Source: Candidatus Nitrosopumilus sp.
GTDB lineage: Archaea > Thermoproteota > Nitrososphaeria > Nitrososphaerales > Nitrosopumilaceae
Direction: 5' to 3'
NCBI GenBank assembly: GCA_025699075.1
Contig: JAILWG010000003.1
Location: 62,001-126,000 of the forward strand
Length of the DNA: 64,000 bases
The position numbers were made by a program, and so were the translations under genes. The stretch's first letter is position 1. The number at the start of each line of letters is the position of its first letter. Shown one piece after another: positions 1 through 21,536 of the stretch. A model generated the notes under the pieces. That model was not told where the DNA came from. It did not search any database and saw only the letters and a list, made by a program, of their open reading frames with translations.

Positions 1-55
1 TGGATTCTATATCATTACAGCTGTTTCTATAGTGGTACTATCATTGGTGTTATAG
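1..55 (+). CDS. 3' end of a small single-TM protein (truncated by window edge)
   Basis: The reading frame from base 2 to the TAG at 53-55 encodes a hydrophobic tail ending LSLVL. It is the same 18-codon tail as the complete 38-residue protein at 15162-15278; bases 1-67 align without gaps to 15224-15290 with three mismatches. The 5' end lies outside the window. It stands directly before the multicopper oxidase and is probably co-transcribed with it. Function unknown. Confidence 0.7.
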   Translation, partial: GFYIITAVSIVVLSLVL

Positions 56-67
56 GAGAAAAATAGG

Positions 68-1402
68 ATGAAACAAAACACAACAATGTTTGTAGTAGTG
101 GGAGTAATCATTGGATTCAGTATTGCATTTGCAGCATTTATTCAATCACCAGAAATTCAAACAACCATTGCCGACTCATCTGAGATTTATCCAAAATTTA
201 CAAATCCTAATCCTAAGACATTATCTTATACGTTAATTGCTCAAGACGCTGAAATTGAAGTGTCACCTGGCATACAAGCTAAAGTCTGGACGTACAACGG
301 AACAGTTCCTGCACCAACTTTGAGATTTTCAGAAGGTGATGATGTTACTGTAAAATTTGTAAACGAAACTCCTTATGCACACACAATCCATTTTCATGGA
401 ACACATGATTCTACAAATGACGGTGTTTTTCCACAGATAATGCCTGGTGAGGAGTACACGTATCGTTTTGTTGCACATGAAGCTGGCATGTTCATGTATC
501 ATTGTCATGCATTTCCAACATCAGAGCATGTAAGAATGGGAATGTTTGGTGCAATGATAATTGATCCTGCCATACGTCCAATGGAGCCAGCACGAGAATA
601 CTTTTTCACTCTAAGTGAGTTTGATCCTAATAATGCATTAGAATACTTTACAGAATTTTATCCAATTAACGGCTATGCAAATCAATACATGGACAATCCA
701 ATCAGAGTTGTTTCAGGAGAGTTAACTCGATTCTATGTGGTTGGAATTGGAGGAGTTTTGCAATCTCCCTTTCATGTTCACAGTACAATAATGAAAGTAT
801 ATCCTTCAGGAATTTTATGGAACGAGCCATACTTTGCACAGACACATCTGATTGGAAACGGTGATACGGCAATTATTGAGGCAACATGGGATACTCCAGG
901 AAAATATTTGTTCCATGTGCATGGAATTCAGGAAGAACGTGGCTCCATGGCAATAATTGAGGTGTTAGAAGATGCATCATCATTATCTAAGATTCAAACT
1001 CCTAGTAACAACAAAGGAAGCTATTCCATGATAGAGTGGCAAGAAGATTTGATAAAATCATTGGAACAACCACAACTAATCTCGTATGATAACCTGGGAG
1101 AAGTAAAAGTTAGTGATGTTCCTAAAGTAAAGACAGACAAAGTAGACATTGTAAAGGATTCATGGAATCCAGATATTGTGGAATCATATGATCCTCTTGC
1201 AATCGAAATTGAATCAGGAACAACTGTTACATGGACAAACCAGGACTTTGTTGTACACACTGTAACTGACAAGGAAAATTCATTTGATTCAGGATTCATT
1301 CAGGCAGGAAAAACTTGGTCATATCAATTTGAAAATAAAGGAGAATTGGATTATTTCTGCACTTTACACCCTTGGATGCAAGGAACTGTCACAATAACCT
1401 AA
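68..1402 (+). CDS. NirK-like multicopper oxidase fused to a C-terminal plastocyanin domain
   Basis: Secreted, membrane-anchored copper enzyme of 444 residues. Residues 8-25 form an N-terminal hydrophobic anchor. Cupredoxin domain 1 (about 50-165) carries a type 1 site at H105, C146, H154 and M159, plus type 2/3-type histidines H110, H145 and H147. Domain 2 (about 170-300) has HVH pairs at 236-238 and 283-285. A third cupredoxin domain (about 350-444) has its own type 1 site, H397, C431, H434, M437, with the signature YFCTLHPWMQGT. Ammonia-oxidizing archaea carry relatives usually annotated as copper nitrite reductase NirK. The position matching catalytic Asp98 of bacterial NirK is His108 (motif HFHG), and four HxH pairs are present, which also fits a two-domain laccase-type oxidase with a trinuclear site. 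Substrate is therefore undecided. The next gene follows after 13 bases, so they likely form an operon. ATG start follows a GGAGAA stretch. Confidence 0.9.
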   Translation: MKQNTTMFVVVGVIIGFSIAFAAFIQSPEIQTTIADSSEIYPKFTNPNPKTLSYTLIAQDAEIEVSPGIQAKVWTYNGTVPAPTLRFSEGDDVTVKFVNETPYAHTIHFHGTHDSTNDGVFPQIMPGEEYTYRFVAHEAGMFMYHCHAFPTSEHVRMGMFGAMIIDPAIRPMEPAREYFFTLSEFDPNNALEYFTEFYPINGYANQYMDNPIRVVSGELTRFYVVGIGGVLQSPFHVHSTIMKVYPSGILWNEPYFAQTHLIGNGDTAIIEATWDTPGKYLFHVHGIQEERGSMAIIEVLEDASSLSKIQTPSNNKGSYSMIEWQEDLIKSLEQPQLISYDNLGEVKVSDVPKVKTDKVDIVKDSWNPDIVESYDPLAIEIESGTTVTWTNQDFVVHTVTDKENSFDSGFIQAGKTWSYQFENKGELDYFCTLHPWMQGTVTIT

Positions 1403-1415
1403 ACATAAAACTGAA

Positions 1416-1799
1416 TTGAACATCTCAAAGTTCTTAAACATTGCAACAATGGCGGTTGTCTTGTTGTTTTTTATTGGAATAATTTCATTTGAATACAAAG
1501 TAATAGGTCTTGCAGAACCACTAATCAGTTTACCCACAGAATGGAAACCATTTTTTGACATTCTATTATGGCCATTAATTATACTGTTAGTGTCTGATTT
1601 AGTTATAAAATATAGAAAAGTCAATGATCCAAAAAAATTCGTAAAAAAATATTGGATTGATATTGTAATGTTGGTTTTGATTCCAATTTTTTCGGCATTC
1701 AAATTTTTGAAGATAGGAGTAAGTTTGGTTAAGAAACTAAAAACATTAAAAATGGGTACAAAAGTTATTCATAAAACAAGAAAATCATTAAAAAAATAA
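1416..1799 (+). CDS. conserved small membrane protein downstream of the oxidase
   Basis: A 127-residue protein of unknown function with two or three hydrophobic segments (about 10-30, 45-62 and 82-102) and a Lys/Arg-rich tail, so it is probably an integral inner-membrane protein with the basic end in the cytoplasm. The best start is TTG at 1416, since the only nearby ATG (1449) would cut into the first membrane segment. It follows the oxidase by 13 bases. A close paralogue sits at 15363-15746 in the same position behind a deleted oxidase, which shows that the two genes travel together. A role as membrane partner of the oxidase is inference from this linkage. Confidence 0.8.
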   Translation: MNISKFLNIATMAVVLLFFIGIISFEYKVIGLAEPLISLPTEWKPFFDILLWPLIILLVSDLVIKYRKVNDPKKFVKKYWIDIVMLVLIPIFSAFKFLKIGVSLVKKLKTLKMGTKVIHKTRKSLKK

Positions 1800-7844: not shown

Positions 7845-8639
7845 ATGGATAAATTTGAAATTGTCTCATCTAATTTTTTGGAATTAGCAAGTGAACAAAG
7901 ACTGAGAATTTTATCTGCATTAAACTCCAAACCTTATAGGGTATCAAAACTTGCAAAAAAGTTAGATGTTACTTCTCAAGAAATTCATAGAAATTTAGAA
8001 CGATTATCAAATGCTGGTTTTGTAATTAAAAAATCTGATGAGCATTATCACATTACTACTATAGGACAATTGATGTTAAGCCAAATGCCTATAATGTTTT
8101 TCATAACAAAAAACCAAAAATATTTTTCAACACATGACATTGGTATATTGCCGACAAAATTTAGTCGTAGGTTGGGTGTTCTTGAAAACTGTGAACATAT
8201 CCAAGGTGTGACTAATGTTTTGGATAAATGGAAAAAAATCTATCAAAATTCCACTGAATTTATTCATGATATAATAAGCGAATCTCCTGGAATGGATGAA
8301 ATTTTGGTGAAGAGGATCAATAAAGGTGTCAAGTATCGTCATATAGTGACCAGTGATCTTGATGAACCTGAAGACCGAACATCCAAATTAAAAAAATTAG
8401 GTTATTATGATTTGATCAAGAGCCAAAAAATTGAGAGAAAAGAAATAATGACTACCAAAACTATATTGATTTTAAACGAGAAAGAAGCTGGAATAATTTT
8501 TCCAACATTTGATGGTACTCCAGATCTTAGACATATGTTTTATGGAAATAGCAGTATGTTCTTAGATTGGGCAGTTGATTATTTTGAACATTATTGGAAG
8601 AAAGCAAAAAAAATCTCTAGAGTTAGTCATAATGCATAA
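7845..8639 (+). CDS. winged-helix regulator with a FilR1-like (DUF1724) domain
   Basis: A 264-residue regulator. Residues 10-80 form an ArsR-type winged helix (LASEQRLRILSALNSKPYRV, then a recognition helix in TSQEIHRNLERLSNAGFV). The remaining part has the alpha/beta features of the archaeal FilR1/DUF1724 sensor domain (stretches GVKYRHIVTSD and LILNEKEAGIIFPTFDGTPD). Such proteins bind DNA through the first domain and an unknown small signal through the second. No clear operon partner; it may regulate the nearby plastocyanin. Confidence 0.75.
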   Translation: MDKFEIVSSNFLELASEQRLRILSALNSKPYRVSKLAKKLDVTSQEIHRNLERLSNAGFVIKKSDEHYHITTIGQLMLSQMPIMFFITKNQKYFSTHDIGILPTKFSRRLGVLENCEHIQGVTNVLDKWKKIYQNSTEFIHDIISESPGMDEILVKRINKGVKYRHIVTSDLDEPEDRTSKLKKLGYYDLIKSQKIERKEIMTTKTILILNEKEAGIIFPTFDGTPDLRHMFYGNSSMFLDWAVDYFEHYWKKAKKISRVSHNA

Positions 8640-14790: not shown

Positions 14791-14934
14791 ATGGGTAAGA
14801 GAATAACATTAGTGTTAGATGATGTTTTGATTACAAAGTTAAGAAAGATTCAAGCTGAAATGATCCAAAAAGAAAATCGTAGTGTATCTTTTTCTGAAAT
14901 AGTAAATTTGGTTCTAAGAAAAGTACTCAAGTAA
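14791..14934 (+). CDS. ribbon-helix-helix DNA-binding protein (47 residues)
   Basis: From ATG 14791, MGKRITLVLDDVLITKLRKI starts a typical ribbon-helix-helix (CopG/MetJ-like) domain: one beta strand, helix, turn with Ser, and second helix SFSEIVNLVLRKVLK. It would bind DNA as a dimer. The longer frame from 14716 is unlikely because a TATA-like TTTTTATA lies about 25 bases before 14791, as expected for a leaderless transcript. It is the nearest regulator to the operator-like palindrome at 15024. Confidence 0.8.
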   Translation: MGKRITLVLDDVLITKLRKIQAEMIQKENRSVSFSEIVNLVLRKVLK

Positions 14935-15023
14935 TTGTTCCTTGAGTAAAATCTAAGAAATAATACATTTAAGATGCTTTCAGGTAATTTGCATAGTTAT
15001 GTTGTTTCTGAGCATGAACTCTA

Positions 15024-15041
15024 GTCAGCTATTTAGCTGAC
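15024..15041. promoter_or_regulatory. operator-like palindrome GTCAGCT-N4-AGCTGAC
   Basis: A perfect inverted repeat with 7-base arms and spacer ATTT. A version with the same spacer length and one mismatch in 8-base arms lies at 20306-20325 before another small membrane protein. Both sit upstream of an identical-length promoter block. It is 52 bases before the ATG at 15076. Confidence 0.6.
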
Positions 15042-15075
15042 CATGCCTTATCATCTTATCATAATATCTATAATC
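15040..15075 (+). promoter_or_regulatory. promoter block shared with the gene at 20379
   Basis: Thirty-six bases running from ACCATGCC to CTATAATC directly before the ATG at 15076. The region 20343-20378 begins with the same octamer, ends with the same octamer and has the same length before its ATG. This fits a promoter for a leaderless mRNA with a conserved start region. Confidence 0.55.
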
Positions 15076-15165
15076 ATGCGAGAACAATATTTCCCTAGAC
15101 ACGAAAGATATTGTGAGTTTTTTTCACAATGTTCTCGCTTTACACTAATGGAGATAATATTATGA
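15076..15165 (+). CDS. 29-residue microprotein, overlapping the next start
   Basis: ATG 15076 opens a 29-codon frame (MREQYFPRHERYCEFFSQC and ten more residues) with two cysteines six apart and many aromatic and charged residues. Its TGA overlaps the next ATG (ATGA at 15162-15165), a sign of translational coupling. The promoter block directly before it supports this start. Several inverted repeats lie inside it. Function unknown. Confidence 0.5.
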   Translation: MREQYFPRHERYCEFFSQCSRFTLMEIIL

Positions 15166-15278
15166 ATTTAGCACTAAAACAAAAAGTAAAACTTACCATG
15201 CCTCGCCACAAAAAGGCATTTTATGGATTCTATATCATTACAGCTGTTTCTATAGTGGTATTATCTTTGGTGTTATAG
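15162..15278 (+). CDS. 38-residue single-TM protein of the oxidase locus
   Basis: Starts MNLALKQKVKLTMPRHKKAF (basic, cytoplasmic) and continues into one membrane segment of about 17 residues ending LSLVL. The 3' part of an almost identical gene opens this window at 1-55. In both places it is directly upstream of the oxidase start. It could be a small subunit or assembly factor for the oxidase complex; this is inference from synteny. Confidence 0.7.
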   Translation: MNLALKQKVKLTMPRHKKAFYGFYIITAVSIVVLSLVL

Positions 15279-15290
15279 GGGAAAAATAGG

Positions 15291-15349
15291 ATGAAACAAA
15301 ACACAACAATGTTTGTAGTGGGATGCAAGGAACTGTTACGATAACCTGA
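15291..15349 (+). pseudogene. deletion scar of the multicopper oxidase gene
   Basis: The first 29 bases of the oxidase reading frame (as at 68-96) are followed directly by the last roughly 30 bases (as at 1372-1402), so about 1.28 kb is missing. The join falls at a short shared GGA/TGG microhomology and shifts the frame, leaving 17 codons to a TAA at 15342-15344; the original stop position is TGA 15347-15349. The flanking genes on both sides are intact paralogues. Confidence 0.85.
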
Positions 15350-15362
15350 ACATGAAACTGAA

Positions 15363-15746
15363 TTGAATATTTCAAAGATCTTAGACATTGCAACAATGAT
15401 AGTTGTATTGTGCTTTTTTATCGGCATAATTTCATTTGAATACAAAGTAATAGGTCTTGCAGAGCCGCTAATCAATTTACCAAAAGAATGGAAACCATTT
15501 TTTGACATTTTGATATGGCCATTAGTTGTATTATTGGTATCTGATTTAGTAATAAAATATAGAAAAGTCAATGATCCAAAAAAATTTGTAAAAAAATATT
15601 GGATTGACATTGTAATGTTGGCTTTGATTCCAATATTTTCTGCATTCAAATTTTTAAAAGTAGCAGTAAGTCTAGTTAAAAAATTAAAGGTGTTCAAAAT
15701 GGGAACAAAGGCTGCATACAAAACAAAAAAATCATTAAAAAAGTAA
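15363..15746 (+). CDS. conserved small membrane protein, paralogue of 1416
   Basis: A 127-residue protein with TTG start, the same length as and highly similar to the product of 1416-1799 across all membrane segments and the Lys-rich end. The reading frame is intact although the oxidase before it has been deleted, so it is either still useful or recently freed. Homology to copy 1 ends about 12 bases after the stop. Confidence 0.8.
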   Translation: MNISKILDIATMIVVLCFFIGIISFEYKVIGLAEPLINLPKEWKPFFDILIWPLVVLLVSDLVIKYRKVNDPKKFVKKYWIDIVMLALIPIFSAFKFLKVAVSLVKKLKVFKMGTKAAYKTKKSLKK

Positions 15747-16085
15747 TTCTCTTGCATTGACAATAATTTTGTAATAATCAGCTTCAGGCTCTGTACTGAT
15801 TAACAACAATTCCTTATTTTCAAGTGGAATAGTAATCATTGTAACTTTGTCATACTCAATCACTGCTGATTTTTCGTTACCTATCTTGTATGATAGGTTT
15901 GCATGCTTTTCAGATCTGTCCAATGTATAATGAATTGACATCATCATCTCCTCTTTGCTTAGGAATTTTTCTTCGGGATTCTTGGAAATGCTTGCAATTA
16001 GTTCACTTTTTGCATTCGTAACTCCGCAAAATCGAATTTTATTATCAAAACTTAGGATTTTTTTACAGATGCCTTCATAATCCAT
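15735..16085 (-). CDS. roadblock-like (DUF6659-type) protein
   Basis: A 116-residue protein with the same order of strands and helices as the protein at 6322 (IRFCGVTNAKSELIASI; KVTMITIPLENKELLLIS). Its 3' end overlaps the membrane protein on the other strand by 12 bases. Probably cytoplasmic; no partner is visible. Confidence 0.65.
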   Translation of the reverse strand: MDYEGICKKILSFDNKIRFCGVTNAKSELIASISKNPEEKFLSKEEMMMSIHYTLDRSEKHANLSYKIGNEKSAVIEYDKVTMITIPLENKELLLISTEPEADYYKIIVNARELLF

Positions 16086-20059: not shown

Positions 20060-20272
20060 CTATGGTATGGATGATATTTTATTTTTAGACATATTTGTCT
20101 CTGAAATTACCTGACTCTGATTCATGTCTGTCAGTCTGCATAACAAATGAATCTGTTCTTCTGATTCAAAATGACATTTTTTACAATCTAACTTGATAGG
20201 TTTATCACAAATGGAGCATGCTTCTATGATTGTTAATTCTATTCCGCATTTCCTACAACTGTCTATTCTCAT
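20060..20272 (-). CDS. seven-Cys/one-His zinc protein, family with 27499
   Basis: A 70-residue protein with C-x2-C-x9-C-x2-C-x7-C-x2-C-x8-H-x2-C, enough for two zinc sites. The protein at 27499-27681 has exactly the same spacing. The C-terminal tail is polar. Probably a protein- or nucleic-acid-binding treble-clef type domain; function unknown. Confidence 0.7.
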   Translation of the reverse strand: MRIDSCRKCGIELTIIEACSICDKPIKLDCKKCHFESEEQIHLLCRLTDMNQSQVISETNMSKNKISSIP

Positions 20273-20305: not shown

Positions 20306-20325
20306 GGTCAGCTGCATAGCTTACC
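20306..20325. promoter_or_regulatory. operator-like palindrome GGTCAGCT-N4-AGCTTACC
   Basis: An inverted repeat with one mismatch and spacer GCAT. It is the counterpart of 15024-15041. Its centre lies about 63 bases before the ATG at 20379, against about 43 at the other locus, a difference of 20 bases or two helical turns. Confidence 0.5.
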
Positions 20326-20378: not shown

Positions 20379-20528
20379 ATGAAATCACAACAAATCTCAA
20401 ACTGGGATAAAATGGTTCATGCCCCTTTCAAAAAGGTCGTAAAGTTTGACCTTATCTGCATGGGAATCGGTGTAGTGATTGGAGTGGGCATTGGAGCATA
20501 CTCTGTTGCTAGCGGATTGTTCAGCTAG
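20379..20528 (+). CDS. 49-residue single-TM protein under the shared promoter
   Basis: The product starts MKSQQISNWDKMVHAPFKK (polar and basic) and has one Gly-rich membrane segment (about 24-43, with GIGVVIGVGIGAY). It has the general shape of small accessory subunits of respiratory complexes. The promoter and operator shared with the oxidase-locus microproteins suggest a link to copper or electron-transfer control. Confidence 0.65.
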   Translation: MKSQQISNWDKMVHAPFKKVVKFDLICMGIGVVIGVGIGAYSVASGLFS

Positions 20529-20555: not shown

Positions 20556-21536
20556 ATGACTGGTATTGTGGAATTCAAAACAATCGAAGCATCATATACA
20601 TCAAAAGATGGATGCAGACTAGTTTGGGGCGGTGTTGATGAAGATGATACCGACGTTGTCATTTTAAACAAAAATGAATTGGAACGTTTAGTTGAAATTT
20701 TTAAAAAAAACTCTACTGGGGAAGTTGAATTAGAAGATCAGTCCAGCTTTATCAGGGTCAATTCCGATGTTACGCAATTTACACTGACAAATCACAGGCT
20801 ACTTGAGGCAAAGACCACTGAAATACAAGAGCAAGTTTTAGAGTTTGCCAAAGTTCCACATGAACCACAATACGTGTACATTGGTTCAAAAGAGTTCTAC
20901 CCATCTGTCTGGATTCGAGATGATGAGAAAACAACCAAAGAAATTATGCAAAAAAATCCAAAACAATCCCTCATTGAGGCCATACTGTCTTCAGAACCTA
21001 ACAAAATCAGACAAGACCTTTCTCCAACAGATTTGTTCAGGATATTTGCAACCAGACGTTCAACTAGAAAATTCCTTAAAACCAAAGTTGAGGATTGGAA
21101 GATAGACAAAATTCTCTCAGCAGCAGACGTTGCCCCTACTGCAGGAAACTTTCAAGGATTTCAGGTATTTTTAATTAAAAACAACAAAACAAAAGAAGCA
21201 CTTGTAGAGGCTGCAAACAAACAACCATATGTCAACGCCCCGGTTGTTTTGGTTTTTTGTATGGAGCCATCAAGAGTCAAACTAAAGTTTTCTCCAGACA
21301 TCTTGGAAAAATTCTCATTGCAGGATGCCACAATCGCTGCAGCATTTTCGTTACTTGCAGCCTCAGGTGTGGGGCTAAGTACAATATGGATTGGAATGTT
21401 TGATGAGGAAAAAGTGAAAAATATTTTGGGAACTGACTTGAGACCTTCATCTATCCTTTGCATTGGCTATCCTGACAAGAAAAAACCTCCAAAATCTAGA
21501 AGGAAACTCAAGGAACTCATCAAGGTAATCGAATAA
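20556..21536 (+). CDS. nitroreductase-family flavoprotein with an extra N-terminal domain
   Basis: A 326-residue protein. Residues 1-145 form an unrecognised N-terminal part. Residues 165-326 are a nitroreductase fold: FATRRSTRKFL (FMN phosphate and ring contacts), APTAGNFQGFQVFLI, then an AAFSLLAASGVGLSTIWIG helix and ILCIGYPD near the end. Such enzymes use FMN and NAD(P)H to reduce various substrates, and also include F420 and vitamin-related enzymes. The substrate here is unknown. It starts 27 bases after the small membrane protein. Confidence 0.85.
   Translation: MTGIVEFKTIEASYTSKDGCRLVWGGVDEDDTDVVILNKNELERLVEIFKKNSTGEVELEDQSSFIRVNSDVTQFTLTNHRLLEAKTTEIQEQVLEFAKVPHEPQYVYIGSKEFYPSVWIRDDEKTTKEIMQKNPKQSLIEAILSSEPNKIRQDLSPTDLFRIFATRRSTRKFLKTKVEDWKIDKILSAADVAPTAGNFQGFQVFLIKNNKTKEALVEAANKQPYVNAPVVLVFCMEPSRVKLKFSPDILEKFSLQDATIAAAFSLLAASGVGLSTIWIGMFDEEKVKNILGTDLRPSSILCIGYPDKKKPPKSRRKLKELIKVIE

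What the first reader, a model, noticed from the sequence alone, without database searches (positions are those of the whole stretch)
15024..15278. Overlapping microproteins under a promoter and operator shared with a small membrane protein at 20379
Palindrome GTCAGCT-N4-AGCTGAC (15024) and its near-copy (20306) stand before two promoter blocks of exactly 36 bases, each beginning ACCATGCC and ending CTATAATC directly at the ATG (15076 and 20379). The palindrome-to-start distances differ by 20 bases, two helical turns, which suggests face-of-helix constraint. The genes controlled are a 29-residue Cys-containing microprotein overlapping a 38-residue TM protein, and a 49-residue TM protein. A ribbon-helix-helix gene (14791) is next to the first site. 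This looks like a small undescribed regulon tied to the oxidase locus.
Basis: partly seen in the sequence, partly recalled or inferred. Interest (0 to 1): 0.7.

Follow-up and report, generated by a model that had tools for sequence, protein, structure and literature searches.

The report
Two-way operator plus translated RNA leader
In ammonia-oxidizing marine archaea, a short two-way DNA switch sits at fixed distances from the start codons of tiny membrane- and metal-protein genes, and one arm feeds a folded, apparently translated RNA leader in front of a copper oxidase gene of nitrogen metabolism; this control circuit appears to be undescribed.

Summary
The palindrome (15024-15041, 20307-20324) is a two-way operator, found in 25 of 95 genomes of the genus (50 sites; reversed-pattern control 0). 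At each of 47 sites inspected, a start codon lies exactly 34/35 or 54/55 nt from at least one edge. That third element is also a conserved three-helix RNA, supported by compensatory changes and absent from Rfam. Its AUG frame is open in 32 of 32 operator-linked copies although the other frames carry stops, and in most copies it ends in an ATGA overlap with the next gene: a translated, structured leader rather than a conserved peptide. The full operon continues into MCO4a, the copper oxidase reported to make HNO from hydroxylamine (window 68-1402); in the 15024 copy that gene is deleted. The RHH protein at 14791 is a poor regulator candidate; a 266-aa winged-helix protein encoded beside many sites occurs in all 25 site-bearing genomes and 1 of 70 others. 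Binding, transcription starts, the leader's mechanism and the signal are inferred, not shown.

The parts
15024..15041 (.). Operator palindrome GTCAGCT-N4-AGCTGAC, site 1; right edge 34 nt before ATG 15076; left-hand gene lost in this copy
15042..15075 (+). Core promoter of the leader operon (TATA-like TTATCATC about 28 nt before ATG 15076); implies a leaderless transcript
   Evidence: position by homology with GTATATTG in relatives; inferred, no transcript data
15076..15165 (+). uORF, 29 codons (MREQYFPRHERYCEFFSQCSRFTLMEIIL), stop overlaps the next start (ATGA)
   Evidence: frame open in 32/32 homologous copies that lie at an operator-type site
15078..15138 (+). Structured RNA leader inside the uORF: P1 GCGAGAAC/GTTCTCGC, P2 with loop CCUAGACAC, P3 with U-rich loop
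   Evidence: z about -4.2; 28 compensatory cells vs 8.4 in shuffles; MFE reproduces the same three helices
15162..15278 (+). TM38, 38-aa single-TM protein (MNLALKQKVKLTMPRHKKAFYGFYIITAVSIVVLSLVL), with Shine-Dalgarno-like GGAG
15291..15344 (+). Remnant of MCO4a start (MKQNTTMFVVGCKELLR*), the rest deleted relative to the copy at window 68-1402
1..55 (+). End of TM38 of the intact duplicate operon (its operator at contig C3:61800 and its RNA lie just before the window)
68..1402 (+). MCO4a / NirK-like multicopper oxidase, 444 aa, next gene of the intact leader operon
   Evidence: 85% identical to the presumed N. maritimus copy
20307..20324 (.). Operator palindrome GTCAGCT-N4-AGCTTAC, site 2, between divergent genes
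20379..20528 (+). TM49, 49-aa membrane protein (MKSQQISNWDKMVHAPFKKVVKFDLICMGIG...), ATG 54 nt from operator
20060..20272 (-). ZnR, 70-aa zinc-ribbon-like protein (MRIDSCRKCG...), ATG 34 nt from operator on the other side
20556..21536 (+). Nitroreductase-family gene following TM49; in relatives often followed by the winged-helix regulator gene
14791..14934 (+). RHH protein; neighbour, judged not the regulator

Best explanation
A winged-helix regulator (266 aa, HVO_A0261-N-like; own copy at G000:C5:86841-87638) binds the palindrome as a dimer and activates two divergent, mostly leaderless promoters, one with the operator edge at -34 and the other at -34 or -54 (two helical turns apart). One arm makes TM49, and in many loci then a nitroreductase and the regulator itself (autoregulation). 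The other makes zinc-ribbon and/or TM38 small proteins and, in full-length operons, MCO4a. On the second arm the transcript usually begins with a three-helix RNA that is read from its 5' AUG as a short uORF ending in an ATGA overlap with, or fused in frame to, the next gene. Translation of the uORF must open the RNA and delivers ribosomes to the downstream start, so the fold tunes output of the operon. Whether it does so by translational coupling alone or also by termination at the U-run in P3 is open. Likely setting: hydroxylamine/nitrosative stress around MCO4a. Shown by sequence comparison: operator, spacing, RNA fold, open frame, gene order. Inferred: binding, activation, transcription start, translation, signal.
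For: 50 operator sites in 25 of 95 genomes, control 0. Every one of 47 sites inspected has a start codon at 34, 35, 54 or 55 nt on at least one side (per-gene tallies); the two apparent exceptions for TM49 (69, 81) have an in-frame ATG at 54 and 55. Phase-locked spacing argues for contact with the basal machinery. Regulator orthologue at 71% identity or more in 25/25 site genomes and 1/70 others, p about 5e-22 counting genomes as independent, usually encoded beside TM49. RNA: 32 distinct sequences, 28 double-changed paired cells vs 8.4 shuffled, 0/500 shuffles as high; compensatory pairs in all three helices, including P1 G-C to A-U in two copies. uORF: frame 0 open 32/32, frame 1 17/32, frame 2 2/32; the loop UAG lies 19, 20 or 22 nt from the AUG, never in frame; ATGA overlap in most copies; in-frame fusion with TM38 in both N. 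maritimus copies and in one copy of G244. MCO4a follows TM38.
Against: No binding, transcript or protein data. Regulator and sites are physically linked, so co-occurrence is not proof of binding. Genomes and RNA copies are related, so counts are not independent events. The uORF peptide is not conserved (mostly non-synonymous differences between close copies), and some copies overlap the next ORF by 10-17 nt or leave a 10-nt gap. Frame openness is partly inherited. One related copy without an operator (L113) has stops in frame. The structure prediction for the regulator failed (pLDDT 40), so the DNA-binding mode is only a family inference. The N. maritimus identity of G106 rests on contig length and gene content.
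Confidence: 0.63

Rival explanations
1. The leader is an attenuator: RNA polymerase stops at the U-run in P3 unless the uORF is translated (or a ligand or protein binds the conserved CCUAGAC loop), so operon expression follows the state of translation or a metabolite.
For: A T-run of 6 or 7 in 28 of 34 copies against 7.6% of 40-nt stretches of the window; archaeal termination efficiency depends on U-tracts with aCPSF1 (PMC8716108, abstract); the P2 loop motif CCYAGAC is nearly invariant.
Against: Three copies, including one from the presumed N. maritimus, lack the U-run; the U-run is short and sits in a loop; no 3'-end data; no Rfam riboswitch match.
Confidence: 0.3
2. The RHH protein at 14791 binds the palindrome.
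For: It is adjacent to site 1; RHH dimers bind short palindromes (family knowledge); an RHH gene lies at +34 of a site in G002.
Against: The family is found at scattered loci in 59 of 95 genomes, including many with no site; the closest relatives listed in other genomes are not at sites. The 266-aa protein tracks the sites almost perfectly.
Confidence: 0.05
3. The leader hairpin is a DNA element (inverted repeat of a mobile element or a further protein site), not a functional RNA or uORF.
For: P1 is nearly invariant in sequence; one operator has an RNA-like element on both sides (C3:61702 minus).
Against: It sits at the 34/35 position in the transcribed direction; it has asymmetric loops, G-U pairs, an open frame and coupling to the next ORF; few copies per genome; no evidence of transposition.
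Confidence: 0.07
4. The 29-aa ORF makes a functional Cys-containing microprotein and the RNA fold is secondary.
For: The AUG and open frame are kept; some copies share CEFFSQCSR; in the presumed N. maritimus it is the N-terminus of a TM38 fusion.
Against: The loop is read in different frames in different species (FPRPE versus SLDQ), many copies lack Cys, differences between close copies are mostly non-synonymous, while base pairs are compensated.
Confidence: 0.1

Closest known systems
ilvB-II motif of Corynebacterium (PMC10272879)
   Same: A conserved structured-RNA candidate upstream of an operon that proved to hold a conserved uORF
   Different: That is a bacterial attenuator with a peptide rich in the operon's product amino acids; here an archaeal, apparently leaderless AUG, no residue bias seen, ATGA overlap or fusion with the next gene, three-helix fold with near-invariant P1 and loop
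Archaeal activators that bind just upstream of BRE/TATA (e.g. Ptr2, LrpA type; from memory)
   Same: Operator edge directly upstream of the core promoter, fixed helical phase
   Different: Different protein family; a single palindrome serves two divergent promoters at 34 and 34/54
HVO_A0261-N / ArsR-like winged-helix regulators of archaea
   Same: N-terminal domain matches PF25213 above the curated cut-off
   Different: C-terminal about 180 aa with four invariant Cys (79, 218, 245, 252) has no Pfam match above cut-off; target sites not previously assigned as far as found
AOA multicopper oxidase MCO4a (Nmar_1354) with hemerythrin Nmar_1353 (PMC12448741)
   Same: The downstream enzyme of the leader operon; 85% identical to the presumed N. 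maritimus copy
   Different: The paper describes the enzyme and its up-regulation in biofilms; the passages read mention no operator, leader RNA or small upstream proteins

Membership tests
uORF / leader-peptide regulated operon | conserved start codon and open frame upstream of the operon | tested here: met
   ATG in all copies listed, frame 0 open 32/32
uORF / leader-peptide regulated operon | mutually exclusive terminator/antiterminator or sequestered ribosome site | tested here: inconclusive
   One strong fold only; the SD is not clearly sequestered in the window's fold; U-run present in most copies
uORF / leader-peptide regulated operon | translation of the uORF alters downstream expression | not testable with these tools
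   needs reporters
riboswitch / known RNA family | match to a curated family | tested here: not met
   No Rfam 15 match at gathering score; only chance-level weak hits
conserved structured RNA | compensatory base changes in helices beyond controls | tested here: met
   28 cells vs 8.4, covariation 0.154 vs 0.076, slid versions at most 0.086
HVO_A0261-N winged-helix regulator | N-terminal domain above Pfam cut-off | tested here: met
   PF25213 51 bits vs 35
HVO_A0261-N winged-helix regulator | binds the palindrome | not testable with these tools
   only co-occurrence 25/25 vs 1/70
copper nitrite reductase / multicopper oxidase MCO4a | Cu-oxidase domains plus C-terminal cupredoxin | tested here: met
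   PF07732, PF07731, PF00127 above cut-off; nearest solved chain 9cck 'copper-containing nitrite reductase'; below the TIGR02376 cut-off
RHH protein as cognate regulator | co-occurs with sites | tested here: not met
   scattered paralogues, also in genomes without sites

The most novel reading that the evidence does not exclude
An archaeal attenuation system: a leaderless uORF written inside a conserved three-helix RNA with a U-run senses translation or a ligand and sets expression of a hydroxylamine-oxidizing copper enzyme, under a dedicated two-way operator whose spacing is fixed to helical turns.
Probability: 0.3. Interest if true: 0.82.

Novelty: new variant of a known kind. Interest (0 to 1): 0.68.

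Why it matters
Ammonia-oxidizing archaea are abundant and globally important, yet assigned sets of transcription factor, operator and targets are scarce for them. This gives a concrete, testable one (protein, site, spacing rule, targets), places a new conserved RNA in front of an enzyme reported to turn hydroxylamine into HNO, and offers a case of a structured translated leader in archaea. The genome taken to be N. maritimus, a cultured laboratory species, carries five sites.

Tried and rejected
RHH as regulator. Rfam search for a known RNA. Relatives of TM49 in viral contigs (none). A structural model of the regulator (pLDDT 40, not used; no fold search made). The first RNAalifold consensus found only P1; P2 and P3 were added by hand from the sequences, then tested on a larger set whose alignment was fitted to that structure, which leans the counts. 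Literature searches found no description of the operator, the RNA or the small proteins; only open-licence papers were searched. Supplementary expression tables were not open to me.

Full report
1. Observation. The two palindromes, the spacings and the ORFs are as stated, with the second palindrome at 20307. The window lies in a 1.44-Mb, 85%-complete genome whose relatives are Nitrosopumilus. The genome holds four exact sites: C3:61800 (just before the window), 15024, 20307 and C5:86321. Over 95 genomes of the genus the symmetric pattern GTMAGCTN4AGCTKAC gives 50 sites in 25 genomes, and the reversed control gives none. This is far beyond chance.

2. Spacing. I read 47 distinct sites with their flanks. 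Each has a start codon 34, 35, 54 or 55 nt from at least one edge. In a separate tally by gene the RNA leader lies at 34 (28) or 35 (3), the zinc-ribbon gene at 34 (8), 35 (1) or 54 (1), and TM49 at 34 (7), 54 (19) or 55 (6); the two TM49 outliers have an in-frame ATG at 54 and 55. Some sites have a gene on one side only, as at 15024. Other genes found at +34 are an RHH gene (G002), a multicopper oxidase (G017), a His/Cys-rich 71-aa protein (G106, G244) and a 45-aa Cys protein (G106). On the RNA and zinc-ribbon side a TATA-like GTATATTG sits about 28 nt before the ATG, which implies transcripts that start at or near the ATG. This is inference; no transcript data were available.

3. The leader. 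The 29-aa ORF at 15076 coincides with an RNA that folds far better than its shuffles (z about -4.2). A covariance model built from 16 copies found homologues in 22 of 200 family genomes. On 32 distinct copies the three helices show 28 double-changed paired cells against 8.4 in shuffles, with no shuffle as high in 500, and sliding the partners lowers the score. The alignment was fitted to the structure, which leans these counts; but compensatory changes are visible directly, such as GCGAGAAC/GTTCTCGC becoming GCAAGAAC/GTTCTTGC in L107 and a similar change in L111. The minimum-energy fold of the window copy gives the same three helices. No Rfam family matches.

4. The leader is also an open frame. 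In 32 copies at operator-type sites, the frame of the conserved AUG is open in all, frame 1 in 17 and frame 2 in 2. The conserved loop usually holds UAG, and P3 usually holds UGA; indels move them but never into the AUG frame. In most copies the frame ends in a 4-nt ATGA overlap with the next ORF; in a few the overlap is 1 to 17 nt, one leaves a 10-nt gap, and in both presumed N. maritimus copies and one copy of G244 it is fused in frame to TM38. A thirty-third related copy, L113, for which no operator was recognised, has stops. Differences between close copies are mostly non-synonymous, so the reading, not the peptide, seems to be kept. Relatedness of the copies means these are not independent counts.

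5. Downstream genes. TM38 (38 aa) and TM49 (49 aa) each have one hydrophobic stretch. Where the operon is complete TM38 is followed by a 444-aa multicopper oxidase with a C-terminal cupredoxin domain. In the window's genome that copy lies at window 68-1402, while the 15024 copy has lost it and keeps only its first codons. The gene is 85% identical to that of G106, whose single contig of 1,645,259 bases matches N. maritimus SCM1 from memory; there it is followed by a hemerythrin gene, as Nmar_1354/1353 are in PMC12448741. That paper calls it MCO4a, reports up-regulation in biofilms, and cites evidence that it makes HNO from hydroxylamine. The same paper lists a nitroreductase family among those up-regulated in all three species studied; whether it is the one beside TM49 was not checked. 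In other loci the RNA is followed instead by the zinc-ribbon gene, with or without TM38.

6. Regulator. A 266-aa protein with an HVO_A0261-type winged-helix domain is encoded beside many sites, often in the order TM49, nitroreductase, regulator. Orthologues of at least 71% identity occur in all 25 site-bearing genomes and one of 70 others. The window's genome has it at C5 beside TM49; the window itself holds only a 44% paralogue (7845-8639). The RHH family is widespread, multicopy and not tied to the sites. The regulator has four invariant cysteines, which would suit a redox or metal signal; that is speculation.

7. Mechanism. The 34/54 rule fits an activator that must face the basal machinery; a simple blocking repressor would not need it. 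I judge the operator and regulon near certain, the RNA fold likely (about 0.9), translation of the uORF likely (about 0.8), and the regulator assignment likely (about 0.75). How the leader acts is open: translational coupling is the minimum; termination at the U-run (28 of 34 copies have six or seven T) is a live rival, given the known role of U-tracts in archaeal termination (PMC8716108).

8. Known or new. No paper found describes the operator, the leader or the small proteins, but only open-licence papers were searched. The parts are of known kinds; the combination, and a conserved structured and translated leader in archaea, look new.

Noticed in passing
window 1-1799 and 14991-15766: Segmental duplicate (95% and 86% identical blocks) in which the second copy lost MCO4a by internal deletion.
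   Followed up: yes
L094 3702-3773 (contig C3:61702-61773, minus strand): A decayed second leader RNA facing away from the first at the C3:61800 operator; a shorter remnant lies left of 15024.
   Followed up: partly
window 7845-8639: A 44%-identical paralogue of the candidate regulator next to a plastocyanin-like gene.
   Followed up: no
L112 4197-4412: 71-aa protein with a His/Cys-rich stretch (CEGGSCEEKGDHRHEHKKK) at +34 of a site in the presumed N. maritimus genome; possible metal-binding target.
   Followed up: no
L127 4845-6230: A different multicopper oxidase gene starting at +34 of a site in G017, opposite TM49.
   Followed up: no
L097 2950-3168, L095 8915-9133: A 72-aa zinc-ribbon-like gene directly follows the zinc-ribbon gene in several relatives.
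   Followed up: no
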